Source: Mesostigma viride (Eukaryota > Streptophyta > Mesostigmatophyceae > Mesostigmatales > Mesostigmataceae). Taken from it: a stretch of DNA of 64,000 bases. The stretch covers positions 5,384,924-5,448,923 of the forward strand of contig RPFO01000027.1 of NCBI GenBank assembly GCA_009746045.1. Direction: 5' to 3'. Positions 9,318 to 44,100 of the stretch are shown here, one piece after another. The number at the start of each line of letters is the position of its first letter. Positions within the stretch are counted from its first letter, which is position 1. Both the position numbers and the translations under genes were made by a program. The notes under the pieces were generated by a model that saw only the letters and a program-made list of their open reading frames with translations, made no database searches and had not been told where the DNA came from.

Positions 9318-9363
<46 letters not shown>

Positions 9364-11324: not shown

Positions 11325-11332
11325 CCCGCAGG
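11325..11332 (+). repeat. 8-bp target duplication CCCGCAGG (left) of the nested hAT element
   Basis: CCCGCAGG at 11325-11332 recurs exactly at 12637-12644 on the other side of the insertion. Eight bases is the hallmark duplication length of hAT transposition. Confidence 0.85.
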
Positions 11333-18700: not shown

Positions 18701-21700
18701 CCCCATCCCCCATCCCCATCCCCCATCCCCCGTCCCCCGTCCCCCGTCCCCGTCCCCCGTCCCCCGTCCCCCGTCCCCCGTCCCCGTCCCCCATCCCCGT
18801 CCCCCGTCCCCATCCCCCATCCCCATCCCCCATCCCCATCCCCCATCCCCATCCCCCATCCCCCATCCCCCATCCCCCATCCCATCCCCCATCCCCATCC
18901 CCCATCCCCATCCCCATCCCCCATCCCATCCCCCATCCCCCATCCCCCTCCCCATCCCCATCCCCTCCTCCCGTTCCCCATCCCCCATCCCCCATCCCTG
19001 CTGCACGTCTTTATCCCTGTAGGGGGGAGGGTATACCCCCCCCTTTTCCTACTTTTGCTGCGACGTCCTCCCCCCTATCATCGTCAAGGGGAAGGTACTC
19101 GCAACAGCGACGATTGTTTTGACAACGACCATGCAGCATGGTTACTGATAAATAGATAGTCATTATGATTGTTTGTCATTATTGCTGCCAGCAGTGCCTG
19201 CACAAATGCCCTAGACACCCGTCTTTCCCCTTACCCCGCCCCATCCCAATAATGCCACAACATGAGCATGCCAATAGCTTCACCACTGCCAGAACGCGGT
19301 TAAAGCTCATCCTTGGTACCGAGTATGTTTCGGTGCGCACTGTATCTGACGATTTATGCTGTCGTTATGCACCATCGGCCCCCCACTCCATGCCAACTGC
19401 CGCTTCCAACCCTGGCCAATCTGCCCCAAAACGGAAAATTCCTCATGCCACGACCACCGTCACCTCCACTGCCACCACCACCACCACCACCACCACCACC
19501 ACCACCACCACCACCACCACCACCACCACCACCACCACCACCACCACCACCACCACCACCACCACCACCACCACCACCACCACCACCACCACCACCACCA
19601 CCACCACCACCACCACCACCACCACCACCACCACCACCACCACCACCACCACCACCACCACCACCACCGCCACCACCGCCACCACCACCACCATTACCGC
19701 CAGAATGCGTTCCACGCGCCCCACTTCCGGGTGTATGCCTCCGATGACATGGTCGGCCTGCAGATCGGCGGCGCGGTCAAGAACGTGAGTTGGTGGCGGA
19801 TGCTAGTTGGTTGCCGTGGTGAGGGTAGTGTCGCGCATCAGGGCAAGTGGGTCGGCCTGCTTATAGGCGTGATGTGCGGTCACGAACTTGAGTTGGTGGC
19901 GATGGCAGGAATGACGAGGGATCAAGACTGATGGCGTACGATGAGTCATGACTCGTGGCTTATGATGAGGCGTCATGACTAGAGGCTCAGCCTGCAAATG
20001 GGTATCATGTGCCGTCGAGCATGTGCGCTTTGGGGGAGGATGGCACAGTCTTGGGAGCGGCTGGTAACGCCATCAGCCCCAGAAAGAAACGGAATGCAGC
20101 GCCGGGAACAGCATGCTATTGATCTACTCCCGTCTGCTGGTTTCTATGGGTCGACTGGTTTTTAGTGGTTTCGTGGAAGCCTATGTGAGAGTTGGTGGTT
20201 ATTCATGGCACACGTGCGGTTGCATGCGATGAATCTATAGACCGGCGTTTCTTACGACACGTCATAAGTCGAATTGATATCGTTAAAGAGGTTTTAGCGT
20301 TTCTTTTTTATGGAACATTCAGGCTTTCATTGACATATGGCACACACAGTATGTAGAATGGTTGATAACCCTGTTTGCTCCCCCCCCCCCCCCCCCCCCC
20401 CCCCAACCTTCCCTCCCTGATCTCCAAATTTGCCTCGCCTCCCCCATAGGTCATAGGAGTGGCGTGGCATCTGCATTTGAAGACATCTCCTTTTCTCATT
20501 CGTATTTTTTTTTGTGGTTGTTCAGACTCTATCTCCCTTGTTCTCCGTGCCCCACCACCACCAACAACCCCCAAGGGTGCGGCTGTTGGGTGTGGCGCAT
20601 TAATGGCATCACAACATGGCTCACACTCATCCCTCGTGGTGGCTCATGCTTGCTCCACGTATGGCTTTGTTAGGACCATCGCGACACACTTGTCCCTACA
20701 GATGGCTCATGCTTGATGACCAAGTTGCCACCGCTGCTCGTGCCCTACTTCACGCTTACAAGTCGTGGCAGTCGTGTGCGGCGCTTGGGATGGCCTGGAT
20801 TTTAGAACCATCGTCCCCCCCCCCCCCCCTCCCTCCCCCTCCCTGTCTTTCACGTGTTTTCTTTCTACCTTCTGATGGCTCTTGCTTTCTTTCACGTTGT
20901 GCCATCGCCCGCGTCATGGTAATGGCATGTGGCGCATGTGACGGCATGGATGTTAGGACCAGGGTTGGGCGTAAAGGGGGTCAGGGGGTTGACGTAACGT
21001 AAACACGTAAAATGGCCAAAAGGGTGACGTAGAACATAATGTAGACGTTGAAGTTGACGTGCGTAAAGTAAAGACGTAACTTAACGTAAACACGTAAAGC
21101 CGCACAAAACCTTATGATTTTCCAGCTAGGTTCCACCGTTCCATGGCCAAAACTAGGCAGTTGCTGTCCGTGCACCGCATGGCGCCGCGCCGACACGGCG
21201 CCTTAGGCCTACAACAGCTTACTAGCACCACTTCACCTCGCAAGTATTTGCCAACATTCCCACACTGATAACGTTTACGTCCATTCTATGTTACGTATTT
21301 ACGCGGAACGTAACGTACAAACGTAGCGTGAAGGGGCAACGTATGTAGAGGCCTTACGTGCCATTTTGTCACCACCTCATTACGTAACGGTTAACCCACG
21401 TAATTACGTAAATGCCATAACGTAACTCCTTGACGCCCAGCCCTGGTTAGGACCCTAACATGCTTTGTTCCCTAGAATGCCCTCTGCCCCCCATCCCTCT
21501 CCCCTCCCCCCACCCCCCAGGTCATGGCGGTCGCCTGTGGCGCGTGCGACGGCATGGACATGGGCACCAATGCGCGCGCTGCGCTCATCACGCGCGGGCT
21601 GGCGGAGATGACCCGCCTGGGTGTCGCGCTGGGGGCAAACCCCCTCACCTTCTTGGGGCTCACGGGCGTGGGCGACCTGGTGCTGACCTCAACAGGTACA

Positions 21701-25260: not shown

Positions 25261-26467
25261 CGTGGCAAACCTATTAAACATGCGATTTTTGGTCTGAAAC
25301 TTTCAAGATAGGTCAGAAACATCTCATAGAATTCAAGAAAAAATCCTGGTATTTTTGGTATTTTTTTTGTGACAGCTGCAAACAAATATGTACCACTGAA
25401 ATCAGGCATTTTCGCGGGACGAAGGTGAAGACGACGGCGATGGCGGCAGGTAGATCTCGCCAGTTTTCGCGCGAATTTCAGTGGCTGTTGGGTGGCATGA
25501 CCATGATGATGCGTTCAAAGGTTGATAATTAGGTTTCTACGAGTTTGTTGAGGTACTGGGGCAAAGGAAACGTAGTTTTTTCCAGTTTCTCACCCAACTT
25601 TCATGCGGAAACCCTGGAAACCGGCATACATATTATTACGTCAAGACTCGGGTCTGCTGCGGCACCATGCTTGGTATTTCCATGGTGTTTCGACTTCTTA
25701 ACACATGTTTATTCATTCCGAACGTCCGGACTCTCGGCTAAACCGAGAATTGTGCAGACTTTTATTGGGTAGCGCCGGGCATGATGGTGCCTGCAAATAG
25801 CGTAAGGCGTGACCGTGGCTATTGCTACGGTATGCTGTATTTTCCTGGAAATGGCCTCTGCCACCGGCTCAATAGTGCTTGCAGGCGTAAGTATATCGTG
25901 TTTCTACCTAGTTTCTGCCAGTTTTCCACTTATTTCTACCGACCTCTGCCCAGCCTCTCTAAGACCGCCATCCTACTCGACGTTGCTTGCATGTCAGCCA
26001 TAGCAGGTTGCAGTTGTGCAGTATTTAGGTGCTGTATACGTCGTCAAGCCGTGCATATATCGTGAGGATTGGATGTTGATGGTTTATACTGCGTTGATTG
26101 TGCAAGAAGACCAGCTAGGTGCCCATAATCATGGTGTATAATCATGTGTTGTTAGCATCTTGCCACCATTTGCTAGCATGCATTCCAGCGTCATCTTTGC
26201 CTGCATGTAAGCTCATGGATCACTCAACCTATCCAAGCCTTGCATTACACGTGCCTCTTTCTTTCAGTATTGCACGCGTTATGGAATGAAAACCATGCTG
26301 TCGCGTCTGCGTGCCACAATCTCCGGCGCCACCATGGCGGCTGGCCACTCAGCTTAATTTGGTAAAACCCAAATGAGCTGAGCTGATGTGCCTGCCTTAA
26401 CTGCATGCCCTGTGGGGTGGGCGAGGACCTGTCCCATGATTCCCCCCCTCGCTGGCGACCGGCCCCA
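25261..26467. other. Region without a recognisable gene, left of the gypsy pol
   Basis: Short open frames only, none with a recognised motif. In minus sense this is immediately downstream of the pol stop, where a 3' LTR should be. A G8 purine run (plus 26442-26449 as C-rich) could be a polypurine tract, but no sequence matching the LTR-like block at 34615-35074 was seen. Confidence 0.5.
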
Positions 26468-29400
26468 TCACGAAGACAGCGATCGTACCAAGACAAGGGC
26501 AGCGGTGACCGCAGTCAAGCTGCGGGAGGTAAACTGCGCAGCGGTGCACACTGGACAAAACCAATCCCCCTCCGGAATGCTGGTGACCACGGGCTGCAAG
26601 CACTGCATGTGCCAACCACAGTTACACTGATCACACAATAACATGGACTCCGCCTGATCGACCCGGTGACAAACCTGACACTGGGCGTCCTTGACTCGGC
26701 GAGATGTGTGCGGTTGGAGGTCGTGGACCAAATTGGGCAGTGAGCAGGGACTGAGATTGCTGAGGTTGTCTGTCGTACGGCTCCCGTCGGCGCCCTCCAA
26801 AATTGCCACTCCCGATGGTTTGATAGCCACAATGCGCAAAATGGTGGGCCCCGCCTCCACATCCAAAGTGTGCTTCAGCTGAGTGCGCAGGAAAACATAC
26901 TGCCCTGGCCTAAACCGCAGCTGGCGAGCCATGTATGCGCCCCCCCGGCGCTGAGCGTAACGCAGGGAGTCCCTGTGCTGAGCAATGAACAAGTTGTTCA
27001 TCGCGATGGGCATGACCTTCTTAAAAGTCTCTGCCCTGGCCAGCACCTCAACCAAAAATTGCTGAGCGTTGTCGAAGGCCATGGGTTCGGGGTGCGCAAC
27101 CTGTGCCTCCGTAGGCAAAAGAGGATTACGCCCGAACAGAAGGAAATACGGGGAGAAGGTAGCGAGAGACTCCTGGGGAGACATGCGATAACCCATGGCA
27201 ATCCATGCCAACTCGCGATCCCACCTGGCCGACTCCGGCACCTGCAGGCTCCACTTGCGCAGCGCCTGCTTGACGGTCTGCACCAATCTCTCAGCCAAAC
27301 CATTGGCCTGAGGATGCTCCCGAGAAGTGCGACGGTGATCAATAAGACATCCATCCAGCAACTCCTGGAACTCACCCCTGAACTCACCACCCTGGTCCGT
27401 GACTACCTCCGCGGGAGCCCCAAACCTGGTGATGATGTCTGCAAAATGCTTCGCTGTGGTAGCGGCATGCTTGTCAGCAATGGGGATCAACTCAACCCAT
27501 TTGCTAAAGCTCTCCACGCATACCATGACATAGAGGTTGCCGTCAGGGCTCTCCTGAAACGGCCCGCACAGATCGACGTGCCAGCGATAAAACAAGCCCT
27601 TGATGGGAAGCGACATCAGCTCCTTGGCACCATGATCTGCGCTAAAGTTAGCCTTGGTTCGAGCACACGGGACACAGCTGGCCACTACCTGGGCCACTGT
27701 GTGTCGCATGTTATTCCACCAATAGCTGGTCCGTACGAGGCTGAGCGTGCGATTGCCACCCAAGTGACCATACCGCTCGTGGTACGCCTGCACTATAGCA
27801 ACGCGCTTGTCAGGCGGTGGGACGACCACCCTACGCTTGCCCAACAGCTTGTACAAAACCCCATCTTCCCAACCATAGGTTGCAGCCCTGTGCTGCACCC
27901 TGTTCAACTCCGTCGCCTTCTGAGCAGGAGTCCAATCGACTGGAGTAGGAGTCAAGACAGCACCCTGCACTTGCTCCAAAACTCGACCATCTAGCCAGAT
28001 ATCAGCGGTGTAGCAATCAGCAAGAGAGCTACGCGCTAAGAGAGCCTGCACAGCGATCAGCTGCTGCAGAGAAGGATCAATGTCAAAGGACAGAGACCTA
28101 CCCTCTTCCATAGCGCACACAGCTTTGGATGGCGTGAATGGCGACGGCCGCACCGGGTCGTCGCTGATGCCGAAGTCCGCCACAGAGTACTCGACACTGC
28201 GCCACCACGCCTCCTCCTCATCGTCGGCCGCATACCCAGCAGCGTTCACAAAGACCACAGAACCCGACGAGCCCTCGGCACCCATGGCCCGGGCTCCAGT
28301 GTGGTCAACAGTGGTAGGCATGGCGTATCGGGATAGCACATCGGCGTTGACATGGTCCTTGCCGGCCCGATGCACAATGGTCATGTGGTACTCCTGGATA
28401 ATCATGGCCCATCGGGCGAGCTTACCCGTCAGGTTGGTGTTGGTCATTAGCCACTGAAGCGGCTGGTGGTCTGTCACCAGAGTAAACACGCGCCCAACTA
28501 AATACGGGCGAAAGTGCTTGATGGCCCACACCACAGCCAGTGCCTCCCCCTCATAGGAAGAATACCGGCTCTCCGCTGGGTTGTTGCTGCGACTAGCATA
28601 AGCAATAACGTGCTCGCGCCCATCACCATCCTTTTGCGCCAAGACCGCACCCAGTCCTACCTTGGACCAGTCGGTATATAACACAAACGGCAAAGCATAG
28701 TCAGGGGCGCGCAGAATCGGGGCCGACGTGAGCTCCTGCTTGATTGTCTCGATGGCGCGTTGCTGTGCGGGACCCCACGCCCACACGCACCCCTTCTTGA
28801 GTAACTCGGTCAAGGGCTTCACCTTGCTGCTGAAGTTCTCAATGTAACCTCGGTAATAGCCAGCCAAACCCAAATACGCCCGCACCCCTGAGACATCCGT
28901 GGGTACGGCGGCCTGCACAATGGATTCGACCTTGGCGGCATCAGGCGTCCGGCCACCCGGCACAATCTGATGACCAAGGAATGAGAGGGTCCGCTGGGCG
29001 AACTTGCACTTCTCAGGGTGCAGCCGCATATTATGCTCCTCGAGAGCCAAGCGAACCTGCTCCAAGTGCGCCAGGTGCTCCTCAAATGTCGCGCTAAAGA
29101 CGATTACATCATCAATGTAACAAGCGGCGAAAGGAAGACCTGCAAGCACTTTGTCCATAGCTCGTTGGAAAACAGCACTAGCGTTGCGGTGCCCAAAGGG
29201 CATGCGCACCCACTCATACAAATTGCCGCCCCCCCAGAATGCAAGCTTCCGCTGATCCTCCGGCGCAACTGCGATCTGATGAAAGCCGCTACGCAGGTCC
29301 AGCGAGGACACAAACTTCACATGAGGAGATATCTTATCCAGGACATCATCCACACGTGGCATGGGGTAACGGTCCACGGGTGTGTGTGCATTCAGCAACC

Positions 29401-29587
29401 GCAGATCGGTGGCCATGCGCATACCCGTCCATGCCCCGGTGATAGCGTCCTTCTTGGGCGCAACGACAACGGCAGCGGCATAGCTGGAGGAAGATTGCCT
29501 GATGATACCGGCATCCTCTAACTCCTTGCATTGCTCGGCTACAAAATCCAACTCGGCCTGACTCAGGCGATGCTGGCGTCGGAACAA
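26468..29587 (-). CDS. Gypsy Pol part 2: reverse transcriptase, RNase H, integrase, C-terminal PHD finger
   Basis: A continuous 1039-codon frame. RT: SSLDLRSGFHQIAV and CYIDDVIVFS (YIDD at 157-160). RNase H: VLYTDWSKVGLGAVL (D306), Glu 347 and TDHQPLQW (D373). Integrase: zinc-binding HERYGHLGGNRT...CVPCARTK (603-644) and a DDE core with D672 (WHVDLCGPF), D731 (VVTDQGGEF) and E767 (ANGLAERLVQ), giving the exact D-X35-E spacing. The last 70 residues hold a C4HC3 PHD finger (970-1014): CQVC, CDQC, GWHMQC, FCPVC. PHD fingers read histone H3 tails, so it may steer integration as chromodomains do in chromoviruses. It overlaps the preceding frame by 25 bases in the -1 frame, so expression needs a frameshift; no ATG begins it. 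Confidence 0.95.
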   Translation of the reverse strand: MFRRQHRLSQAELDFVAEQCKELEDAGIIRQSSSSYAAAVVVAPKKDAITGAWTGMRMATDLRLLNAHTPVDRYPMPRVDDVLDKISPHVKFVSSLDLRSGFHQIAVAPEDQRKLAFWGGGNLYEWVRMPFGHRNASAVFQRAMDKVLAGLPFAACYIDDVIVFSATFEEHLAHLEQVRLALEEHNMRLHPEKCKFAQRTLSFLGHQIVPGGRTPDAAKVESIVQAAVPTDVSGVRAYLGLAGYYRGYIENFSSKVKPLTELLKKGCVWAWGPAQQRAIETIKQELTSAPILRAPDYALPFVLYTDWSKVGLGAVLAQKDGDGREHVIAYASRSNNPAESRYSSYEGEALAVVWAIKHFRPYLVGRVFTLVTDHQPLQWLMTNTNLTGKLARWAMIIQEYHMTIVHRAGKDHVNADVLSRYAMPTTVDHTGARAMGAEGSSGSVVFVNAAGYAADDEEEAWWRSVEYSVADFGISDDPVRPSPFTPSKAVCAMEEGRSLSFDIDPSLQQLIAVQALLARSSLADCYTADIWLDGRVLEQVQGAVLTPTPVDWTPAQKATELNRVQHRAATYGWEDGVLYKLLGKRRVVVPPPDKRVAIVQAYHERYGHLGGNRTLSLVRTSYWWNNMRHTVAQVVASCVPCARTKANFSADHGAKELMSLPIKGLFYRWHVDLCGPFQESPDGNLYVMVCVESFSKWVELIPIADKHAATTAKHFADIITRFGAPAEVVTDQGGEFRGEFQELLDGCLIDHRRTSREHPQANGLAERLVQTVKQALRKWSLQVPESARWDRELAWIAMGYRMSPQESLATFSPYFLLFGRNPLLPTEAQVAHPEPMAFDNAQQFLVEVLARAETFKKVMPIAMNNLFIAQHRDSLRYAQRRGGAYMARQLRFRPGQYVFLRTQLKHTLDVEAGPTILRIVAIKPSGVAILEGADGSRTTDNLSNLSPCSLPNLVHDLQPHTSRRVKDAQCQVCHRVDQAESMLLCDQCNCGWHMQCLQPVVTSIPEGDWFCPVCTAAQFTSRSLTAVTAALVLVRSLSS

Positions 29588-32500
29588 AGGGTGTCAGTGT
29601 CCAATGGAACACGCATGGTCCCACCATTGAAACACCCCAGTTCATCACTTGTGAAAGCGAAGGCCCCCCTTGCAGTGCCTAGCCACTTTAGCATGGCTGA
29701 GCGCTGCGCATCAGAAAGGTGTTCGCCAATAGCCCAGGGGTGCGTATCCGCGGGATCACCCACAGCTACCGCATGTGCCTCAAGATGCGGCGCCCTAGCC
29801 GCATCGTCGTGGAACAAGGAAAAGGCTGCCACGCCTGGTGTGACACCCACCGCCGGAGCCTCGCGTGCCGCACGGTGTATTACCCGATGCAGCGTGGGCT
29901 CGCCGGCCAGCACGGTGCTGGTCAGCAGGGCGGTCATGAGAATGATAGTCCACACCTGTCGCAGACGCCACCCCCATGCTGATGAAGTCCCCGTCGCTGC
30001 AGGGCGCTTCAGTTTGGCTGCGCGCGCCTCAACCTGCTGAGGCGGATTGGCTGGGGACGCCCCCCCAGACTGGCGCACGGCAACCGATGCAAGCAGCACA
30101 TACCCGACCTGCAACACCGACATAGCCTGGCCTATCAAAGACCAGCGCTCACTCTCGAGCACGCCCGGCAGCGCCGAGGCCCCGACATGAAAACCCATGC
30201 TGGCCTCACGAAATTCTGCGGGTGGCTGCACCAACAGACCGGTGGTAGTGTCCCAAACGAGACCCTTACCCCGATCACGGTATGCTGTCGACCCTTGGTA
30301 ACTGACCAGGGTCGGCAGTGCACACATGGGGCTCCCGACCCGGTTGACGCGTGCATACGGTGGGCGATCCTCGCTATCCACCTTCTGCGTGACTAGGTGG
30401 GAAGGCAATGCTACCTCCGCAGACACACTCGGATGCTGCCTTGCTACGGCCCCCAAGACCGCCTGCACATCGGTCGCACACGCCACGTTGGTCCAATAGG
30501 CACGCAAACGATGCGTGAGCCCACCCAGCCCTGCGTTGTCACACACGATGGGCTCCCCCAGGAGTGCCACGATTGTAGCCCAGTCCTCCCGCACCGCCTG
30601 ATGTGGGCTGTCACCCGCCACAACGTTCTCAAACAGATACGCAGGCGGATGGGGCTGACGCGACTGCAACAGTCCCACCACACGCAACAGTTCCCAGAAC
30701 AGCGCGCTACGCGGATCGGCTAGCCCCCGCCCTTGCCCTGCCTGGCTCAGGCCCTGGCACTCCCAACCCGCAATTACCAAGTCGATGGCATGATGCCTGC
30801 GCAACAACTGCTGCACCTGCACCTCACCGATGGCTCGGATATCTTGAGGACATTCCCCAAACGGGTCACGCCATGCTGATGGCGGAAACTGCGCGGGATA
30901 CTCTCGCGACAACACGCCACAGTGACTGAAGTACACCTGACGCGCCTTGTGCGATGGCTCTACCGCGATGAGTTTACGGCACACGCCGCCTGCGGCCAAA
31001 AAGCCTGCAATGCCCCCTCCGATCCCCGCAAACAGTTCCAACACTACCGCACCCTTGGCAAAATCAGGGGCCTGCGGTAAGATTGCAGCAGAAAAATTAC
31101 CTTGGGCCTCCGAGACACCCGGTTGCAGCAAAGTGAGGCCATGGCTGGCCATCTGAGGAATGGTGATGACGGCTTCAGTTACCCGCTTGCGCATAGCCAG
31201 CTGCCGCGTGGACGTCACAGCATCCAGCGACCACTGCGTGCGCATCTTGGCAATGCTCGCCGTTGGCTGGGGCAGCACCGTCCGATGCTTGTCCCACGCC
31301 GATGAGCCCGCCGCCCGTACCTCCACCATGCTGACCTCCACCACGCCCGCAGCCGCGGAAGGGTTGAGGCGTGCAGCCCCGGCTGAAGAACTGAAGCATG
31401 AGACCGGCACGCTGGCCCGCTTCAGGCCAGCCCCATCCCAATCAGGGATGTAAGATGCCTCCTCCGCCCTATAGTCCACCTGAACCATGGCGCGAGCAAG
31501 GACATCCACCCCGAGTAGTGCGGAATATCCACACTTGTTGACCACCAGCGCATACGCGGACACGGTGGTCATGCTAGAGGCGCGCAACGGATTGAAAATC
31601 ACGTTGACTTTAACCGCCGTCATAGCGTACGGCTTACTAGCCGGACCCTGCCAACCTGACACAGACACGGGGCTTTCCACTAAGCCACCGTTCTCGTAGG
31701 TCAGGTTCAGCATGGTGGCCAAGTCCGTGCTGATGACTAGCGGCTGAGCACCGCTATCAAGCTTGACTGCGCCAACCAACGGACATGTCACCATGTCGCT
31801 CCATACATCTCCACAGGCTCCAACTGCTTGGAACGCCATGGACGGCTCACCATTGGGGTATGGAACCACCGTGGGAACCTGGGGGACTGCACTAGTGCGC
31901 TGCTGGCTACTTGTGCTGACCACTCCCGCTTGCACCACGGGCACTGCGGCTTCTACCGGCTGGCGCCCGTAGGTGACGGACTCAGAATTGCGCAAGGTGC
32001 GCACATCATGCCCATCTGCGAACAACTGGATCTCGGACACAACCGACCCCAGCCACTCAACCCCCTTCTGCCCGAAGGTGTCGACCACCTGCCGTGCTGA
32101 AAACATGGGTACGTCCACAATGAACGGCATTGGGTACACAGGCGCCAATCGCCTACGCTGCTCCAGCCCAGCAGGGTTCGCATGCTCAAAAGCAGATTGC
32201 ACCCCAGCCAGCGGCATGGAAAAGGACGCGGGCAACTGCCCGGCAGGCAACATGGGTGCCTGCTGAAAAGAAAGCGGGCTGCGTGCCTGCTTGCCTTTGG
32301 TAGCCTCCGCAGCGTTGATCTCGACGTCACCCGGCATGGGCGCCCAGAATGGGTCCTCCCGGTACACCGTCTCGAATTGGTTGGGGGGCGCCGTCGCCTC
32401 CTCACCATGCTTGATGGCAGCCACCTGGGCTTCCATCGAGTCGGTCTTGCCCGCCATCTCGGCGAAGTGGACCGTCTTGATGCCCGCGGCTGGACACTTG

Positions 32501-32640
32501 TTCATCAGGTGCCACTTCGTGTCTGCCCCATGCGGCTTCGTGCAGCGGCTTGGACACTCGCGACTAAGGTGCCCATCCTTGTCGCAAAGGAAGCAGCCCG
32601 ATTTGCGCGCATCCGTCCTAGTACCCGTCTGTGAGGACGT
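29563..32640 (-). CDS. Gypsy Pol part 1: zinc knuckle, aspartic protease and C5-cytosine DNA methyltransferase
   Basis: The frame is open from about 32640. First comes the Gag-type zinc knuckle CFLCDKDGHLSREC (about 32553-32595). Numbering from the ATG at 32505 (980 codons): protease around KLDSGAQPLVI (250-258) and SALLGVDVLA (328-337). Methyltransferase at about 486-810: motif I LELFAGIGG (489-497), motif II IAVEPSHKA, motif IV GWECQGLSQAG with cysteine 583, motif VI LFENVV (624-629), motif VIII THRLRAYWTN (664-673) and motif X GQAMSVLQVG (792-801). Such enzymes put a methyl group on carbon 5 of cytosine in DNA using S-adenosylmethionine. The usual PCQ of motif IV is ECQ here. A hydrophobic stretch, WTIILMTALLTSTVLA (852-867), follows. 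The frame ends within the RT leader region. Confidence 0.92.
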   Translation of the reverse strand, partial: TSSQTGTRTDARKSGCFLCDKDGHLSRECPSRCTKPHGADTKWHLMNKCPAAGIKTVHFAEMAGKTDSMEAQVAAIKHGEEATAPPNQFETVYREDPFWAPMPGDVEINAAEATKGKQARSPLSFQQAPMLPAGQLPASFSMPLAGVQSAFEHANPAGLEQRRRLAPVYPMPFIVDVPMFSARQVVDTFGQKGVEWLGSVVSEIQLFADGHDVRTLRNSESVTYGRQPVEAAVPVVQAGVVSTSSQQRTSAVPQVPTVVPYPNGEPSMAFQAVGACGDVWSDMVTCPLVGAVKLDSGAQPLVISTDLATMLNLTYENGGLVESPVSVSGWQGPASKPYAMTAVKVNVIFNPLRASSMTTVSAYALVVNKCGYSALLGVDVLARAMVQVDYRAEEASYIPDWDGAGLKRASVPVSCFSSSAGAARLNPSAAAGVVEVSMVEVRAAGSSAWDKHRTVLPQPTASIAKMRTQWSLDAVTSTRQLAMRKRVTEAVITIPQMASHGLTLLQPGVSEAQGNFSAAILPQAPDFAKGAVVLELFAGIGGGIAGFLAAGGVCRKLIAVEPSHKARQVYFSHCGVLSREYPAQFPPSAWRDPFGECPQDIRAIGEVQVQQLLRRHHAIDLVIAGWECQGLSQAGQGRGLADPRSALFWELLRVVGLLQSRQPHPPAYLFENVVAGDSPHQAVREDWATIVALLGEPIVCDNAGLGGLTHRLRAYWTNVACATDVQAVLGAVARQHPSVSAEVALPSHLVTQKVDSEDRPPYARVNRVGSPMCALPTLVSYQGSTAYRDRGKGLVWDTTTGLLVQPPAEFREASMGFHVGASALPGVLESERWSLIGQAMSVLQVGYVLLASVAVRQSGGASPANPPQQVEARAAKLKRPAATGTSSAWGWRLRQVWTIILMTALLTSTVLAGEPTLHRVIHRAAREAPAVGVTPGVAAFSLFHDDAARAPHLEAHAVAVGDPADTHPWAIGEHLSDAQRSAMLKWLGTARGAFAFTSDELGCFNGGTMRVPLDTDTLCSDASIA

Positions 32641-34313
32641 GCCCCCCCAGCTCGCGTCGGGGCGGCAGCGTCTTTGTTGCCGCCAGCGGCGTTACCCTGG
32701 GTTGCATCATGCGATGAGGCGTTGCGAGACCCCCCTTGGTTCCTGCTAGCACCGTGGCCGCCTTGCGGGCGCGCTTGTCTTGTGGCAGACGACTCACCCG
32801 ACTTGGCCTTGGTCAGCGCGTCGACCTTGGCCTGCAGCTCGGCCACCACCGTGCTTACCGAGATCCGGCCTTGCGCGTGTCGTCGCATCATGGCCCTGAC
32901 CTCAATGCACAGTGACCGCAATCGCCACGGCTGGCCGTTGGGCGGCGTGGGCAGCTCCATCTCCTTGGAGCCTAGCGCTTGCAGCCATTTCTGACACGCC
33001 AGCTTTTCGGACCAGTCCTCCACTTCGCCGGCGAACTCCATGAGGCGCTCGTAAGATTGCTCCGGGGTTTCACCCTCGGCTATCTTGAAACTGCGCCACT
33101 CACGCTCTGCCTTGATGGTCTCCACCGGGTATTCCTGGCGAAGGAGGCCCCACAGTTCCTCGGCAGGGTCGACACCATACATGATGTTGTCATAGTCGGG
33201 CTGGCCACGCCCGTCGAAGCCGAACCACACGTCCGTGTGACGCGTGTACAGCGAGACCTCTCTCCACTGCTCCACCAGCCTAGCCACTCGCCTCAGCGTA
33301 AGGCCGTGAAAGAAAAAATGCATGTTGTTCATCACAAACTCATGCATTACAGCGCCTTGCGTAGTCATGTATTGCAGATCAATCCATGACTTGTACGCGT
33401 TGTAGGCCTGCGCCAGCGTGGCCAGATTGCCGGTTGTGGAGAACTTCTCGCGCATGTCCACCCGTGGTAGGGTGGGCATCTTCGCGCCTTCCGGTATGAG
33501 GCGCACCCTTTGCGGGTACTGCACCCCATCGGCATCCTCCGGCGGTCGCTGAGCTGCGCGTCCCTGCGCCAGCGTGCTTGGTCGTGCTGCCTCCCGTACT
33601 CGGAAAGCCAGCGGCGTGGTTATGTCCTCCATGGGCGGAATGCGCCCGATTGGCACACTTGACCACCGTGCAGTCGACCCGCCGGTCAGCGCCCCACCGC
33701 CTCGCCCAAACGGAATTGAGGCCCCGCCTGGCAGCATGCGTCCTGGTGCACCCCTGTGTGGGTCCATCGCGCGCGCCAGCCCTGCCCCGTTCTCCTCGTG
33801 CAATCCGTCTCGCGCTTGATCGAAAGGCAGGCGCCTGGGCGCCAGCGTATACTCGCCCCGTGGCTGACCATCCGCCTCACCAAGCAAGTCGTGTTGGGTT
33901 AGCGACCCAGCCAAAACCCCCGGTTCCATCGAAGCCCTTCCCGCCGCATTACCTGAGGTTGGCGGCTGGTCCCGCTCCCTCGGCTCCGCGGCAACACCAC
34001 TGGGGCCCGGCATCGATGCCTGCCCGTCCCATGGTGTGGACTGCAGATGACGACCCTCTACGGCCACCAATCTGTCGGTCACTTCCCGCATCTGCAGCGC
34101 CAATTGCTGCTGCAACTGTTGCGACTGTTGCTGCATCTGCGCTTGCATCTGCGCGAACAGCGCCACCATACTCAGCGGCGCTTCTTGGTCGCGACTCTCA
34201 CCCACTGCGGGTACGGCGGGAGGAATCCCGCCATTCGACCCCGGAGCGGACGTGTCGGCATCTGCTCTATTTGCATCTGCCATGGCTCGAGTCTGCGCTC
34301 GCGTCAGTGGCAT
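32505..34313 (-). CDS. Gypsy Gag polyprotein
   Basis: ATG at 34313 (MPLTRAQTRAMADANRADAD) opens a frame of about 600 codons. Near the N-terminus a Gln-rich coiled-coil segment (MQAQMQQQSQQLQQQLALQM) should drive Gag assembly. The centre matches the retrotransposon Gag fold, with VDLQYMTTQ-like and EWRSFKIAEGETPEQSYERL segments. The zinc knuckle that should end Gag lies in the frame of the following ORF; the switch occurs at a run of seven C (32641-32647). It is either a one-base assembly or replication slip or a real programmed frameshift giving Gag-Pol. An in-frame reading without a shift ends at 32505 with a non-homologous tail. Confidence 0.85.
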   Translation of the reverse strand: MPLTRAQTRAMADANRADADTSAPGSNGGIPPAVPAVGESRDQEAPLSMVALFAQMQAQMQQQSQQLQQQLALQMREVTDRLVAVEGRHLQSTPWDGQASMPGPSGVAAEPRERDQPPTSGNAAGRASMEPGVLAGSLTQHDLLGEADGQPRGEYTLAPRRLPFDQARDGLHEENGAGLARAMDPHRGAPGRMLPGGASIPFGRGGGALTGGSTARWSSVPIGRIPPMEDITTPLAFRVREAARPSTLAQGRAAQRPPEDADGVQYPQRVRLIPEGAKMPTLPRVDMREKFSTTGNLATLAQAYNAYKSWIDLQYMTTQGAVMHEFVMNNMHFFFHGLTLRRVARLVEQWREVSLYTRHTDVWFGFDGRGQPDYDNIMYGVDPAEELWGLLRQEYPVETIKAEREWRSFKIAEGETPEQSYERLMEFAGEVEDWSEKLACQKWLQALGSKEMELPTPPNGQPWRLRSLCIEVRAMMRRHAQGRISVSTVVAELQAKVDALTKAKSGESSATRQARPQGGHGASRNQGGSRNASSHDATQGNAAGGNKDAAAPTRAGGARPHRRVLGRMRANRAASFATRMGTLVASVQAAARSRMGQTRSGT

Positions 34314-34614
34314 GCACCAGCTGACCGATGGGCAAAACAAGAACCAACAAGCCTAGGTTTCGCTGAGAAGAAGCAACAACCAAAGGCTTTATAACAGGTG
34401 TCAAGGATAACGACTCGACTAGCCTGCCAGAAAAAGACAAGAGCCAGCAAATTCTGGCTAGTTCTATTTTCTTAAAATCTGTCTCAAGACACTTCCTTTA
34501 CAAACTGTCAGCCAGGCCGTTCCCTGTACTGCTGATGGTTGCTAAACACTAAAGCCAACGTCTTGGCTTCGAACAGAAGGAAGCAGACTACCGGGTAGTC
34601 TCTTCGAGTAAAGT

Positions 34615-35074
34615 TCCTTTCTAGAAGAAATCCCTTTTTAGGGCTGCCAGCGATTTCGCATTCATTCCAGCGATCTGGCTCCGCACCGCAAATTGTCCTT
34701 TTCCATTTTCTGTCCAGTCCTCATAACGTTGACCCGCTATTCTACACCACAAAGACACCTGGCCTGTCAATAGCCTCGGCGCTGTTGAAGTCCAGCAGTC
34801 CAGCTTCAGCTCCAGCTGTCCACTAACACGCGTATGATCCTCTCGACGCTGCACACTTGTGCTGCCGTCCGCTCAAGTCAGTGCTGCGCGCCCAGCTGTG
34901 CCTGGCCCGGCGCGCGTGCACGTACACTTTCGTCCGCTCTTATGCTGCAAGTGCTAGTGTCCCCCCCCGGTCACTAGCCTTTGTCGAAAATGCGTAGAAG
35001 ACAAATTCCTTGCGCACGTCACCGGTCTTGTGCATAGTGGGCGCCCGGATGACATAGCGCGCGTCCGTGACAAT
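34615..35074 (-). repeat. LTR-like block at the 5' side of the gypsy element
   Basis: In minus sense it begins TGTCACGGACGCGCGCTATG and ends near TTCTAGAAAGGAACTTT. An inverted, closely similar copy lies at 35846-36360. Its position upstream of Gag and its TG start fit a 5' LTR, but the CA end and a second same-orientation copy were not located. Confidence 0.5.
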
Positions 35075-35640
35075 GCAGCACCTCCGTTCCCACGAGGCAT
35101 GTGCTCAACACGTTGTGAGAGTGGATGATGCTTTGGCTATGGATGCCTGATTCAGTCATATTAGGTCATCCAGTCATGATGTTTGATGCATGTTTGATGC
35201 TGTATAACTTATACAACACCTATTTTCAACGTTTTGACCCTCCAAGCTCACTATGGCCCCGTTTATGGGGCTCATGTCGTTGCGTCATGTTGTGAAGGGC
35301 TCTCATTTTTCCCACTGCGTTGTACTGCGTTGTAATTGTGATGCTAATGAAAAATAGCTCCAGTGGCCCAATGGGCCTGAGTTTTGTTTCACAGAGCCTG
35401 CATATGTTGCCCATAGCTCGTGCAAGAAGCCAGATTTTTTTCATGAACCATTTGTGAATAAGCACATGACTTGTGACCTAGGGTCAAGAAATCGCGGTCA
35501 TGGTCAGACCCCCCTGTATTCAAACCAGTGTATCTCTCTAATGAATTAGCATTTTGTAGGTCTGAGTAGCTCAAAAAATCCTTTGATTTATGGGCTTTCA
35601 GGAAAGTATATACATGACCATGAAAAAAAAATTTCCTTAG
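35075..35640. other. Region without a recognisable gene
   Basis: AT-rich sequence between the LTR-like block and the right TTAA terminus. Only short frames, none with a recognised motif. Confidence 0.5.
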
Positions 35641-35845: not shown

Positions 35846-36360
35846 CGTGTCACGGACGCGAGCTATGTCATCCGGGCGCCCACTATGCACAGACCGGTGA
35901 CGTGCGCAAGGAATTTGTTTTCTGCGCATTTTCGACAACGGCTAGTGACCGGGGGGGGACACTACCACTTGCAGCATAGGGGCAGGGGCAGGCGCGCCGG
36001 GCCAGGCACAGTCGGGCGCGCAGCACAAGAGCGGACGAAAGCGTACATGCGCGCGCGCCGGGCCAGGCACAGCTGGGCGCGCAGCACTGAATTGAGCGGA
36101 CGGCAGCACAAGTGCGCAGCGTCGAGAGGATCATACGAGTTAGTGGACAGCTGGAGCTGGAGCTGGAGCTGGAGCTGGACTTCAACAGCGCCGAGGCTAT
36201 TGACAGGCCAGGTGCATCTTTGTGGTGTAGAATGGCGGGTCAACGTTATGAAGGCTGGACAGAAAATGGAAAAGGGCAATTTGCGGTGCGGAGCCAGATC
36301 GCCGGAATGAATGCGAAATCGCTGGCAGCCCTACAAAGGGATTGAGCTTCTAGAAAGGGA
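35846..36360 (+). repeat. Inverted second copy of the gypsy LTR-like block
   Basis: It begins TGTCACGGACGCGAGCTATG in plus sense and follows the block at 34615-35074 (inverted) through to CTTCTAGAAAGGGA, with extra copies of GGAGCT and a duplicated CGCGCCGGGCCAGGCAC segment. It may be a solo LTR of the same family in the opposite orientation. It lies outside the right TTAA terminus. Confidence 0.55.
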
Positions 36361-36562
36361 AGATTAGAAGCAATGTTTGCTGGGCCACTCACACGCGAGG
36401 TGTGAGCGTGCAGACTGTTTGAAGGATATTATGCTTCGACCTTGGTGGTCATGGCTCAATGCCGGACATTCCCAGGGACAGAAATGCCGGAGTCTCTAGG
36501 AGATGAGATCGGCAACAGGGTAGCAATTTAGATTTGTCGGGATGCCTTTTTGCTTTTGTTGG

Positions 36563-38990: not shown

Positions 38991-41772
38991 ACACGAGCAC
39001 CCATGAGTTGCCAGGGGTCTCTTGCATGGGTTGCCCACTTGCCAGACGGTGTCCTTTGACACATGTTCCCAGAGGGGGTGGACCGTCACCTTACAAGTGG
39101 CTTGACAACGTCCCCTTACAAGTGGGGTGTGGGTCACTTGCCAGTTGGGGCCCTTACCTGCGCCAGACCATTGTGACCACACTTTTACTTCTCCGAGGAC
39201 ATGATGGTTACCACTGCTTGTTGGCAGATGGCCCCTGTTGGGCCTAGGAGGTGCACTAGGACAGCAAGTATGGACACCAGGGCTGCTGTCATAGTTCTTA
39301 TCTGTGAATATATCTGATATAGTTCTCAGATCAGAATTTTTGACACTGGGCAAGGCGCTTTTAGGCCCATTCTCTTGACTTTTGGGCAGTTGTGCTGGCT
39401 GTTGGACCACCTCAGGCCCTTGTCACTCCTTAGGCTTAGGAGTTCTGGCTACCTGGCACTTGGTAGTAGCCATGATAGAGTCAGCTGTCTTGACAGGTTG
39501 GCAGTCTGTGGTTTGCCTACTAGGCAGTTTTTTCTGAGTGCCATAGTGAAGGTTGCGGGCTCCTTCTTGCAGCTGATTGACGTTCAGTCCGGGAAGTTGA
39601 CAGCATGTGGTCATTCTTCCAAGCAGCTTCTGGAGCCAGGCTCATTGGTGTCCGTCCCAGGCCTCCTTAAAGCAGCTTAGTCACTTCCCCATCGCGTGAC
39701 CGGCGCAAGCAGCTAGTCTTGGTTGTCCAGTCAGGCAACCGCTGTGTTGACTACCCACATGTGGGGGTGGTCCAACGCTGATTGGGCGTGGTGGCAGTAG
39801 CCTATTGGGGACTTGAGGCCAGTGGGGGATTGGTAACTTGTCAATGGCGGACATGGTGCATGGAGGCGACGCTGGAGAGTATCCTGGTGGTTGACTAGTG
39901 CTGTTGGTGGTGACTGCAAGCACTCAATGGTGGAGACTTCATCAAGCACTGCATGGTGGCCGCTGGGACTCTGGTGACTTGGGGACGCCCAAGTGACGCG
40001 TATCTGTAATGCTGGTGCCTGCTCCTGACGCTGTGTTGGGTCCTGCCTGCTGGTGGACATCAAGCCAGCCGTGTGCAGATGAGTAACCTCCTACCCTTGC
40101 TTTGCCCTGCTATGGACTTATCCTTGCTTGCATGGTGCCAGGATGGCTTGTTGTCTTGATAGTACACCATCCGCCCTTGAGCTGATTGCTTGCACAGCAT
40201 GATGGTTGTATGAATAGGACTGCTTGCACGGGGGGTCTGGCATCATGTTTGCATGGGTAGGATGTCCTTGTGGGTTGGATGATGGGCGGGATCAACGGAG
40301 CTACAACTGTGGGGCCGGCTGGAATCTTTGGCATGACAGTGATGACAATGGTGCCCACTCCGTTGCCTCTTAATTGAGGAGTTGGACTACTGGGTGCTGG
40401 GCGGGGGCTCACATGAGCTTAGAGGTGTGGGTTTGTTGAGGGACCCATTCAGCCCTTTACCACCCTTACAACCTGCCTCATATGCATCAGTATCCGTGGT
40501 ACACTGACATTAATACTATTTGGCAGTCTACGTGGTTCACGAACATGGATACTACCTTCCATGCTTTGACTAGGGGGACATTGTTCAGTCTACTTGCTAG
40601 GGCCCTGCCAAGCTGAGGGTGTATCTGTTTGATGACTGATGGCCTCATCCAGCATACCCTTATGCTGCCCTACTTGTGCAACCTTGTCTTGGGCTCCTTC
40701 GATCCTAATGCCCACATTACCTTGCATGGTAGTGCCACCTGGATGGTTGCGGGGAGTGATGTTGTTGCTGGGGGCCCTGCCAAGCTTGAGCACATCAGTT
40801 GCCTGATTGGTGATTGCTTTCAGTTTGCTCTCAAGCTGCCCTGTATGCAACTCCGTCTTGGACACTTTGCTGTAGTGCCCATCCCATCTTTAGTCATGAG
40901 GTGCATAGGACGCCGTTATAGAGAGACCCTGCAGGCCACCAGTGGGTCAGTGGGCTGAGAGACAGGCCTCCCCCACCCTTCTATGGTTGGCTGGGCCTCT
41001 GTCCTTATGCGTATTCCATGGCGTTTGTTCCTGCTAGGTTATGCTGTCAATCTTGGGAAGTTGATACCAGGATTATTACAGCTTATTCTACGCAGAGGGG
41101 TGGAATTATTAGGCATGCTGGTAGTCTCCAGTTTACCAGTTATGCTGAGGGGGATTTGTGTGGGGAGCAGGGCGTGCAGGGGATTGGGCTGCGTCTAAAC
41201 CTTGCATGGGGTAGCGTGTGCTACGCTTTACCAGTTGGGGCATACCGTTCATAATGCTGGTGAGGCATTACGGATCTTTTGCTATCCCTATCAAGGCTGT
41301 GGATGGTTTCCCAGGCATCTTATGGAGAAATAGTGTGCCTTGGCTCATAAAAAGCCACTGGCTATGGGTTGAGAGTACTAGCTACTAAGGAGATGTGGCT
41401 TTACCTCACTCTTACTCCTGTGGGTGCGACTGGAGGGGGGGAAATTTTGTTCTGGTGGGGAGGAGATCTATGAGGATCATAGCGTGGAGACACCTTGGGA
41501 TTTCAGTTCATCTTTTCTGGGTCTCCTCATAGATCCCTGACTATCCTCATAGAACCTGATGGTATCCTGGTTTCGCTGGCCATCGGTGGGCTATTTTGGC
41601 TGTGCTTTGTTGCATCTCCCCAACCTGCTGACGGGTACCCACTGGAGACAACCCTGTCCACGGCCTCATGGGCGTACTTCTGAGATAACCTTGCTCTTCA
41701 TGAGGCGACCCTGTTGGCGACGTCTTCCTGCTGGATTGCTCCTGTCTCTTGGTGACTGCACTTCCACCTGGG

Positions 41773-41870
41773 GCGCTGTTGACGTTTCCTCGTTCCAGTT
41801 TGCGTGGACTGCCGGGTGTCAGCGGGCCTTGGACTTGCTGCAGCAGAAGCTCATGCCAGCCCTGTGTTAG
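41773..41870 (+). pseudogene. Trace of gypsy RT-RNase H junction in the LARD-like interior
   Basis: The plus-strand frame reads VDVSSFQFAWTAGCQRAL then DLLQQKLMPALC before a stop. This resembles the FxWTxxCQxAFxxLKxxL segment between RT and RNase H in gypsy elements. Nothing on either side extends it, so it is a degenerate relic that suggests the element descends from a gypsy ancestor. Confidence 0.4.
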
Positions 41871-43387
41871 GATTGAGCATTCTTGGCATCCATCCAGCCT
41901 GCTATGACCTGATGAGCCTTGGACCCTGGCAGCCCAAGTTAATTATGGGGGGTTGGCTGTGTAGAGGGTTAGCCTTGCTACATGACACTCTGCTTCCTGC
42001 CCTGATCAAGCAGTGAGAGCTGTCAGTATTCATGGCATGGATCCCTGTGGATGACCCGTTATCCCTGGGAATGTCAGGCTTGTCCTTCACCCGTGGACTC
42101 TAGCTGAGGGAGGGTGGTGTCCCAGAACCTGGAGTGGCCTCACCTTGTTTGGCTTAGGTGCCTTGGCCCTGTTGACTCCTTCCTGGATTCATGTGGACTC
42201 ATCGAATCTGACTGGGATCTGAGTTGAGTGGGATGGACTCTTGGGGGAGTTTGGTGGGACTAAGCTGAGATGACATCCAGATCTTGGTGACCAGCTTCTG
42301 AGGATAGTTGAGGGGATCTGAGCCTGGATGGCACATGGAGAGTGACTTCTGTGTTGTACCCCGACATATGACATATGGAGTTGTTCACCTAGGGCTTGAT
42401 GCCTGGTATGATTCGCAGTATGAGTCGCAGAAGACGTGGTTCATGTATGCACACCAGCCTGTATGAGAGTGGCTCCCCTTTTTGTGGCTCATCTGCTGCA
42501 TAGGATGTATGCATTGTCACCAGGACCTGAGTTTGATATGAGGCCTACTGAGGGGCAGGACATGCTAGCAGCCTTACCTGAGGCCTTGAAGGAGGCATTT
42601 ACTCAGTTGCAGCCAGTGAGTATGGGAGAGACTTCTACCTCTTTTGCAATCCCGGGTTGCCCCACGTACACTGTGGAACTTAGGGTCCGTCTGATGCCAC
42701 TATGGGTGCTGGTGCCCTGATAGGTGCTAAGTGGTCTGTGGTCAAGACCTTTCTGCAGTTCTGGTGAGCGTACAGATCAGGGGTGAGCAGGCACAAGACG
42801 TCCTCTACTTGGGTGATGGACCCGGCGAGTCAGTCTGTGGTGCTCCTCTCCTGGGGCATGCTTCCGCTATGCTGTCCAGATGGTGGCAGGGGCTACTGAG
42901 ACTTGCATGGTGCTGAAGGTCAGCAGGAACTGGCCAGAGTTGGCCCACGTGGTGGGGCAGTTTCCCATGTGTGGACCCAATGGCAAGGTGGCCTGAATGG
43001 GGATTGGTATAGCCTGTGAGGAACAGGGCTGAGAAGGAAAGGGGGGCTTTGGATTGTGGTGTGAGGGGGGGGATTCCAGGATGGATGATGGGGGGGGCTC
43101 CATTCCAGTTCTGCTGTTCAAGTCCGGAGTTCCAGAATTCCAGAATGATGACGGGATGACTTCCCGTATTGCTGTGATTATCTGGGCTTGTAGTGGATAA
43201 GGATGTGACTTGTCTTCCTTAAGCACCTGTGACTAGATGTTTATGAGATAGGAGGCCCTGGCTTCAGGGATGTAAAAACCCATCTGCTTGTCCCAAGAGA
43301 TGGTGGACTTCCTGTTTATTGTTGTGTTGTTCTTGTGTAGGTTGTTGTTTATTCTTCTTGGCTTCTAGGAACTGGGAGTTCCTGTCT

Positions 43388-43400
43388 TGAGGGGGAGATA
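43388..43400 (+). promoter_or_regulatory. Polypurine tract of the LARD-like element
   Basis: TTGAGGGGGAGATA abuts the right LTR start; GAGGGGGAGA is a typical plus-strand primer tract. Confidence 0.8.
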
Positions 43401-44100
43401 TGTAACAACCAAATGTTACATCCAAAGTTTTCCTACTGGTGACCTTATTATGAGTTCTTGGGGACAATTATTTGGATAGTTAGGAGGCTTCGACGTATGA
43501 TTGATATTGGGCCTGCTGAGATCTGTCGAATTATTGTTCTACCCTCATTGGTCGTGGCCTGATCCACGTGGGGTACTTTGTATGGTTTAGTTCAGCCAGT
43601 CATAGATTCTCTTTAAGACTGTCGTACCTGGTGGATCTGGTTCCAGGTCACGGAGATTCTGTAGTGCTGGCCTTGTGCTGTGTTGTGGATTCTGAGGACA
43701 GGATCTTACCTTGAGTGATCCTCACTTTTGATTGGTTCTTTCGGGTTAGGGTTGAGCCGACTCTGCGTGCACGATGACTTTTATACTGATTGTGGCGGCC
43801 GTGCATGTGTGCGTACGTGAGAGCTAAAGCTATGGTGTAATTCAAGGGTTTCCTTGTTTCATCAATCAAACAACCCTTGCCAAAAGTCAACTATAACTTC
43901 AACAGATAGTCGACTTGGATATAACTTGTCTGTTGTGTCTAACAAGGGTGGGGACTCATTCCCTTAACTGTTGAAGATCCATCTTCATTGCTTCTCTGGA
44001 CGTGAAGTTATCTGTCGCGACTCCAACCCAGGTATAAAGATCTTTTCACGCTAATGTTGATACTGAGGCTGTTGCAAACACAACATTTTTAGTCGTTACA
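43401..44100 (+). repeat. Right LTR (700 bp) of the LARD-like element
   Basis: Appears identical to the left LTR; an 80-codon minus-strand frame within it reads the same in both copies. GTTGG follows at 44101-44105. Confidence 0.95.

What the first reader, a model, noticed from the sequence alone, without database searches (positions are those of the whole stretch)
29563..32640. A gypsy retrotransposon that encodes its own cytosine DNA methyltransferase between protease and RT
The frame between protease (LDSGAQPLVI) and RT carries the ordered C5-methyltransferase motifs: LELFAGIGG, GWECQGLS, LFENVV, THRLRAYW, GQAMSVLQV. The position inside pol and the uninterrupted 980-codon frame argue for a functional passenger rather than a chance insertion. 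As I recall, capture of such enzymes by LTR retrotransposons has been reported in a charophyte alga and in dinoflagellates; a case with this gene order in this kind of genome would be a further or separate capture. An element that methylates cytosines could silence itself, rivals or its target sites, or tolerate host silencing.
Basis: partly seen in the sequence, partly recalled or inferred. Interest (0 to 1): 0.92.

Follow-up and report, generated by a model that had tools for sequence, protein, structure and literature searches.

The report
Algal retrotransposon carrying DNA methyltransferase
A jumping element in the genome of a green alga carries its own DNA-methylating enzyme inside its replication polyprotein; a few such cases were known, and this one belongs to a wider family in which the enzyme has stayed with the element while changing its place in it.

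Summary
Window 26298-35072 (minus strand) is a Ty3/Gypsy element whose pol reads protease - C5-cytosine methyltransferase (MT) - RT - RNase H - integrase - PHD finger. MT is supported by Pfam (2e-11), by the catalytic motifs, and by a confident model (pLDDT 90) nearest to DNMT3A/3B. The host is very probably Mesostigma viride, a streptophyte alga; its genome holds at least 47 near-identical copies without a stop in this frame. The same kind is in print: KnitGypsy-Dnmt3 of the charophyte Klebsormidium, with a like repeat layout. A separate capture here is unproven and, I think, less likely than inheritance. New here: 28 proteins from other sources carry this MT: 8 before RT, 10 between RNase H and integrase, 10 in frames without RT (9 protease-MT, 1 fragment). 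The 24 MTs put in a tree form one clade, and MT and pol diverge in step. The two long repeats also look separately inherited. Most likely job: methylating the element's own cDNA; inferred, not shown. The window copy is damaged (no 3' LTR, truncated 5' LTR, pol split by a frame break); copies without that break exist.

The parts
26298..35072 (-). Whole inserted element in this copy (8775 bp; complete copies about 10.73 kb)
   Evidence: Boundaries by comparison with ten other copies and a 3-bp target-site duplication
35073..35075 (.). Target-site duplication CAT, 5' side of the element
   Evidence: 3-bp duplication in 9 of 10 copies with both ends found (window included)
26295..26297 (.). Target-site duplication CAT, 3' side of the element
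34613..35072 (-). 5' long terminal repeat, truncated (460 of about 1138 bp)
   Evidence: other copies have 673 bp more at the inner side
26298..26441 (-). Short repeat 'B' (about 143 bp) at the 3' end; in complete copies it occurs on both sides of the 3' LTR (LTR - coding - B - LTR - B)
32505..34340 (-). Gag-like frame (611 codons); no Pfam match
32554..32595 (-). CCHC zinc knuckle (CFLCDKDGHLSREC) near the start of the open protease-MT frame, before its first ATG
   Evidence: Read
29563..32505 (-). Protease - methyltransferase frame, 980 codons from ATG (open from 32691)
31492..31764 (-). Aspartic protease (LDSGAQPLVI)
   Evidence: Pfam matches below cut-off; D250 nearly invariant in a 15-row alignment
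30061..31053 (-). C5-cytosine methyltransferase domain, DNMT3-like
30757..30759 (-). Catalytic Cys583 in GW-E-CQ (motif IV)
   Evidence: Kept in 25 of 26 readable relatives
30625..30630 (-). Glu626-Asn627 (motif VI, ENV)
   Evidence: 25 of 26 readable relatives
30502..30510 (-). Arg666-x-Arg668 (motif VIII)
   Evidence: 26 of 27 and 25 of 26 readable relatives
26468..29587 (-). RT - RNase H - integrase - PHD frame (1039 codons)
28964..29458 (-). Reverse transcriptase (PF00078, 4e-28)
28388..28777 (-). RNase H (PF17919/PF17917)
27311..27820 (-). Integrase: zinc-binding and DDE core (PF17921, PF00665)
26546..26680 (-). PHD finger (PF00628, 5e-9)

Best explanation
A Ty3/Gypsy LTR element, very probably of Mesostigma viride, encodes a DNMT3-type C5-cytosine methyltransferase as part of its protease-pol polyprotein. 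Shown: the domain, its motifs and predicted fold, its open frame in all 47 scored copies, and its joint divergence with pol in a wider family of elements. Inferred: the domain is made in the particle with protease and RT and, using S-adenosylmethionine, methylates cytosines (probably CG) of the element's own double-stranded cDNA before or during integration. A new copy would then arrive already carrying the mark of resident DNA in a CG-methylated host. Also inferred: the MT descends from one old capture of a DNMT3-like enzyme by this Gypsy lineage and changed its place in pol in one sub-lineage.
Against: No activity, expression or methylation data were examined. The cloned KnitGypsy-Dnmt3 domain gave no methylation in yeast; the authors call this inconclusive. 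CpG is not depleted in this element (observed/expected 0.85 against 0.71 in the window's flanks), so there is no deamination scar, although the copies are young. The 47 copies are the best of 759 candidates, so intactness is partly selection by the search. One relative (P0031) has lost the catalytic motifs and still has RT, RNase H, integrase and PHD; the one named relative, Closterium P0045, lacks part of the MT. Position 582 is Glu where HaeIII has Pro (10 of 26 readable relatives share Glu, 15 have Pro). In the pol tree rows without MT in the same protein are scattered among MT-bearing ones, which would also fit repeated gain or loss. The branches are long and the program warns of it. A phage enzyme also matches DNMT3 best, so the DNMT3 likeness does not prove a eukaryotic donor. 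The window sequence alone matches DRM first, weakly.
Confidence: 0.5

Rival explanations
1. The MT acts in trans on host chromatin, rival elements or target sites. With the C-terminal PHD finger reading a histone mark, the pre-integration complex methylates the surroundings of the insertion.
For: The PHD finger is present in the window's element and in many pol relatives. de Mendoza et al. discuss effects on host methylomes.
Against: No insertion-site or methylome data were examined here. The Klebsormidium methylome was like that of land plants.
Confidence: 0.2
2. The domain is kept mainly for a non-catalytic role, such as binding cDNA or RNA in the particle.
For: P0031 keeps a degenerate domain in an otherwise full pol.
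Against: Cys, Glu-Asn and Arg-x-Arg are kept in 25-26 of 26-27 readable relatives at about 36-42% mean MT identity within the two architectures, which fits selection on catalysis.
Confidence: 0.1
3. Mesostigma's element captured its MT independently.
For: The window MT has a long branch and no starred sister. The Klebsormidium MT could not be compared.
Against: The MT lies on one side of a branch with 23 other tested element MTs, 100/99; the order protease-MT-RT is shared; MT and pol distances track each other.
Confidence: 0.15
4. The MT protects the host against DNA viruses and so benefits the element indirectly, as proposed for transposon methylases in PMC6338049.
For: Speculation in that paper (passages seen).
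Against: Nothing examined here bears on it.
Confidence: 0.03
5. Artefact: chance motifs, contamination or a dead passenger.
For: The window copy itself is damaged.
Against: E-values, predicted fold, 47 open copies on many contigs and relatives elsewhere.
Confidence: 0.02

Closest known systems
KnitGypsy-Dnmt3 (Klebsormidium nitens; de Mendoza et al. 2018, PMC5890265)
   Same: Gypsy element with a DNMT3-type MT in the Pol frame; repeats laid out like a DIRS element; host a streptophyte alga (text and legend read)
   Different: Sequence and domain order of the Klebsormidium element were not available, so descent from one ancestor is unproven; the host here is in another class, Mesostigmatophyceae
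SymbioDIRS-Dnmt3 (Symbiodinium; same paper)
   Same: DNMT3 in a retrotransposon Pol, split repeats; CG methylation shown in yeast
   Different: Tyrosine recombinase instead of the DDE integrase found here
SymbioLINE-Dnmt (same paper)
   Same: Retrotransposon with a C5-MT
   Different: LINE; MT of an orphan type in an upstream frame
DNMT3A/3B
   Same: Best profile and fold match
   Different: About 18-24% identity in the structural alignments; GW(P/E)CQ instead of GSPCN; no PWWP or ADD domain found in the three frames; separate from the element MTs
Ty3/Gypsy elements of plants
   Same: PR-RT-RH-IN order, LTRs
   Different: MT and C-terminal PHD; extra B repeats; 3-bp target-site duplication (usual features recalled)

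Membership tests
C5-cytosine DNA methyltransferase (PF00145) | Sequence family match and SAM-binding motif I (FxGxG) | tested here: met
   E 2e-11; G494 in 24 of 24 readable relatives
C5-cytosine DNA methyltransferase (PF00145) | Catalytic Cys of motif IV, ENV, RxR, motif X | tested here: met
   Pro before Cys is Glu in the window (a departure)
C5-cytosine DNA methyltransferase (PF00145) | Methylates cytosine in DNA | not testable with these tools
   Needs an assay
DNMT3 family | Nearest family by profile and fold | tested here: met
   the single sequence alone hits DRM first, weakly
DNMT3 family | Groups with eukaryotic DNMT3 in a tree | tested here: inconclusive
   holds only 2 DNMT3 fragment sets and 2 phage enzymes; the element MTs stand apart; long branches
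Ty3/Gypsy | PR-RT-RNase H-integrase order with DDE integrase | tested here: met
   (protease below cut-off)
Ty3/Gypsy | Two LTRs | tested here: met
   7 of 10 other copies read with flanks have two (about 1138 bp); the window copy has only part of one
Ty3/Gypsy | Target-site duplication by integrase (4-6 bp recalled as usual) | tested here: inconclusive
   Duplication of exactly 3 bp in 9 of 10 copies
KnitGypsy-Dnmt3 | Gypsy pol with DNMT3-type MT and DIRS-like repeat layout | tested here: met
   compared with the paper's words
KnitGypsy-Dnmt3 | Common descent by sequence | not tested
   Its sequence was not reached; K. nitens pol P0044 falls on the same side of a branch (51 rows, 100/98) of the midpoint-rooted pol tree but carries no MT in its partial frame
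DIRS/PAT elements | Split direct repeats | tested here: met
   LTR - coding - B - LTR - B
DIRS/PAT elements | Tyrosine recombinase | tested here: not met
   DDE integrase found, no Phage_integrase match in the three frames; so it is not filed as DIRS

The most novel reading that the evidence does not exclude
A single old capture founded a lineage of methyltransferase-bearing Gypsy elements that is widespread beyond the published Klebsormidium case. In it the MT moved from before RT to between RNase H and integrase, is made as gag-protease-MT in some members (hence packaged in the particle), and is kept catalytic. The lineage combines a DDE integrase and 3-bp target duplications with DIRS-like split repeats whose 5' and 3' long repeats are inherited separately, which the standard LTR strand-transfer scheme does not allow.
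Probability: 0.4. Interest if true: 0.78.

Novelty: new member of a known kind. Interest (0 to 1): 0.6.

Why it matters
Methylation is usually the host's weapon against retrotransposons. An element family that carries the enzyme itself, keeps its catalytic residues over deep divergence and moves it about its polyprotein gives a testable case of a transposon that writes an epigenetic mark. The near-identical copies and a published bisulfite methylome for this host make the question open to direct test. The repeat layout is also a lead on an unusual replication route for an element with a DDE integrase.

Tried and rejected
Rejected: chance motifs or a dead passenger; filing as DIRS (no tyrosine recombinase). 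A phage or plasmid donor found no support. Phage tblastn gave 299 records, all under 60% identity and none covering 80% of the query; the 20 listed reach 39%. Plasmids gave 2 weak records. A viral-contig scan with the single sequence found none. With the 9-row profile it gave 24 loci, the lowest E-value being L035, 42% in its best segment, query residues 80-176; L035 was read and has a 423-codon frame with MT motifs and no RT in the part listed; the other 23 were not read. Prokaryote contigs gave 7 loci: six partial matches, and L059, a gag-protease-MT plus RT element in a contig filed with a cyanobacterium, which I take for misbinned eukaryotic DNA.

Led nowhere: counting host DNMT genes and other MT subfamilies in the same genome (the search did not complete); the MT-region protein search; CpG depletion as a sign of self-methylation (not seen); direct comparison with the Klebsormidium MT (sequence not reached). 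In the pol tree many rows carry no MT in the same protein. Some may be second frames of two-frame elements, as L059 shows, so MT absence was not scored.
Full report
What is there. On the minus strand of the window lie three consecutive frames: a gag-like frame (34340-32505), a protease-methyltransferase frame (32505-29563, 980 codons from ATG, open from 32691) and an RT-RNase H-integrase-PHD frame (29587-26468). Pfam finds DNA_methylase at residues 488-628 of the second frame, E 2e-11. It finds RVT_1 4e-28, RNase H 9e-39, integrase zinc domain 1e-16, rve 4e-11 and PHD 5e-9 in the third. The protease is below Pfam's cut-off (E 0.04) and rests on its motif and on relatives in which it is recognised. 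A zinc knuckle (CFLCDKDGHLSREC) lies in the open part of the second frame before its first ATG (read).

Host. The window lies in a 440-Mb genome of 2243 contigs. The only hit of the 980-aa frame among the 7997 candidates scored in a 5.8-billion protein collection is 99% identical over 74% of the query and carries the label jgi/Mesvir1. I read that as Mesostigma viride, a streptophyte alga (taxonomy): very probable, not proven.

Copies and boundaries. The genome search scored 47 of 759 first-look candidates; all 47 match at about 100% identity without a stop. These are the best candidates, so decayed copies go uncounted. In 23 of the 47 the match covers all 980 residues of the window's frame; 21 of these 23 have the window's 1042-codon frame, i.e. 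its break before RT (the other two, 1084 and 1596). In 24 the match stops at residue 972 because the frame runs on differently; 15 of these 24 have a 2074-codon frame in which protease, MT, RT and the rest are fused (verified in copies C224, C998 and C1391). Both groups hold recent copies. C887 and C1912, with the break, match the window's internal region at 100% over 8317 and 8316 bp. C998, without it, has LTRs 99.8% identical. A form with the break has therefore spread, by frameshifting, by help in trans from unbroken copies, or, less likely given so many copies, through an assembly error.

Repeat layout. Ten further copies were read with flanks. Seven have LTR (about 1138 bp) - coding - B (143 bp) - LTR - B. 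C224 and C1912 lack the 3' LTR with one B; C1413's 3' end was not found. This is the split direct-repeat order of PAT/DIRS elements (the paper's legend gives A-coding-B-A-B), and de Mendoza et al. state the same structure for KnitGypsy-Dnmt3 (legend). Ends TGTC...GACAG are flanked by an exact 3-bp duplication in 9 of 10 copies with both ends found, the window's CAT among them; C998 is the exception (chance 5e-16 at 1/64 each). None matches at 4, 5 or 6 bp. In the window copy the 5' LTR is truncated and the 3' LTR is missing; loss by recombination between the two B repeats would leave what is seen at the 3' end (inference).

Separate inheritance of the two long repeats. Among 17 5' and 15 3' repeats, a G run about 104 bases in is 8 long in 16 of 17 5' copies and 7 long in 15 of 15 3' copies. 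The one exception, C1912, is a copy without a 3' LTR. The window's own 5' repeat, not in that count, reads 8. Further in, variants are shared by the two repeats of one copy (columns 999 and 1037 in all six pairs compared; one pair of six differs at 1035), though shared subfamily would also do that. Ordinary LTR replication copies both repeats from one template (recalled), so a lasting 5'/3' difference points to another route. Caveats: it is one homopolymer; of 10 copies added, 3 had no readable 5' repeat and 2 no 3' repeat at the expected place.

Relatives. A search with the RT frame listed 120 of 1811 hits; a search with the MT of P0034 listed 13. Among the sequences so fetched, MT was found by phmmer or by a profile in 28 proteins besides the Mesostigma one (P0123). 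Eight have MT before RT: P0007, P0010, P0026, P0030, P0032 (profile only), P0034, P0045 and P0133. Ten have MT between RNase H and integrase: P0028, P0031, P0035, P0046, P0050, P0052, P0054, P0060, P0108 and P0134. Nine (P0124-P0132) are protease-MT frames without RT, seven of them with a zinc knuckle upstream (read); P0135 is a fragment. Only P0045 carries an organism name in the listing, Closterium sp. NIES-54, and its MT lacks a stretch. L059 shows gag-protease-MT and RT-integrase as two consecutive frames on one contig. In such elements the MT would be made at Gag level and packaged (inference).

One lineage? In the MT tree (27 of 31 aligned rows; P0007, P0031, P0123 and P0124 dropped) the ten RNase H-MT-IN members (P0135 counted with them) form one clade, 100/99. 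With DNMT3A/3C fragments and two phage enzymes (28 rows; P0030 also dropped) all 24 element MTs stand on one side, 100/99. The branches are long and the program warns of it, so this is support, not proof. The pol tree used 58 rows, nearly all from P0003-P0070. It is midpoint-rooted, because no row of the intended outgroup was complete enough, and 16 incomplete rows named in the call were left out. There the seven complete RNase H-MT-IN members are again together, 100/98, and the window groups with P0030 and P0032, 92/82. Rows without MT in the same protein are scattered among MT-bearing ones there; some may be second frames, some true losses or never-gains. MT and pol distances correlate: r 0.60 over 17 elements (p 0.0001), 0.87 in the first architecture (n 8, p 0.0003), 0.80 in the second (n 9, p 0.0022) (one pair, P0126 with P0004, rests on equal contig length; P0007, P0031, P0032 and P0135 were not used). 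This speaks for long joint inheritance with one change of place, against repeated captures. The AU test does not reject the first architecture as a clade either (p 0.16).

Selection. Among 27 relatives' MT domains (P0032 not aligned) the catalytic Cys is kept in 25 of 26 with a letter there, Glu-Asn in 25 of 26, and the two Arg in 26 of 27 and 25 of 26. The one loser, P0031, has lost them together. No Ka/Ks was computed.

How it may work. De Mendoza et al. showed CG methylation in yeast by SymbioDIRS-Dnmt3 MTs and inconclusive absence for KnitGypsy, and proposed methylation of the cDNA for DIRS. The M. viride paper reports 5mC by LC-MS/MS and bisulfite sequencing, CG the most abundant site. 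Self-methylation of cDNA in the particle is the reading that best fits MT's place beside protease and RT. CpG in the element is not depleted (0.85 against 0.71), which gives it no support.

What is in print. I read parts 1 and 2 of 7 of the text of PMC5890265 and its sections on charophytes, activity and discussion; passages of PMC6338049, PMC9861306, PMC12344493 and PMC6947507; and one section of the last. PMC12344493, in the passages seen, mentions DNMT3 in retrotransposons of streptophytes and dinoflagellates as earlier reported. Ten literature searches showed in their listings no title or abstract reporting a Mesostigma element with MT or the RNase H-MT-integrase order. Most listed papers were not opened, the library holds open-licence PMC papers only, and Repbase entries were not seen.

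Verdict. A real and probably recently active MT-bearing Gypsy family; a new member of the kind founded by KnitGypsy-Dnmt3. The lasting interest lies in the wider family, the two places of MT and the repeat inheritance. Identity of the domain: about 0.97. cDNA methylation as its job: about 0.5.

Noticed in passing
window 48443-49864 (-): One open frame joins a PARP-type catalytic stretch and a RING finger (both below Pfam's cut-off) with a Deltex C-terminal domain (3e-41; nearest solved DTX2), a fusion reminiscent (recalled) of the PARP9-DTX3L pair.
   Followed up: partly
window 35848-36562 (+): An older, inverted LTR fragment (about 88-93% like the LTRs of other copies) lies head to head with the truncated 5' LTR, 775 bp away.
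   Followed up: partly
window 8569-14009 (+): Copia-type pieces in separate frames (Pol_BBD, weak RVT_2), looking decayed.
   Followed up: no
window 40001-44000: CpG observed/expected falls to 0.30 against 0.58-0.96 in the other 15 blocks of 4 kb.
   Followed up: no
window 17742-18998; 16415-17177; 57592-58229: Long tandem arrays (7-bp C-rich, 49-bp, 35-bp units) overlapping long open frames.
   Followed up: no
L059 1-6299: A Gypsy element with MT sits in a contig filed as a Synechococcales cyanobacterium MAG; probably misbinned eukaryotic DNA.
   Followed up: partly
L031-L032 (copy C1912), window: Copies without a 3' LTR keep a perfect 3-bp duplication; C1912's single LTR carries the 3'-type G run.
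   Followed up: partly
P0031: A family member whose MT has lost Cys, Glu-Asn and Arg motifs while RT, integrase and PHD remain.
   Followed up: no
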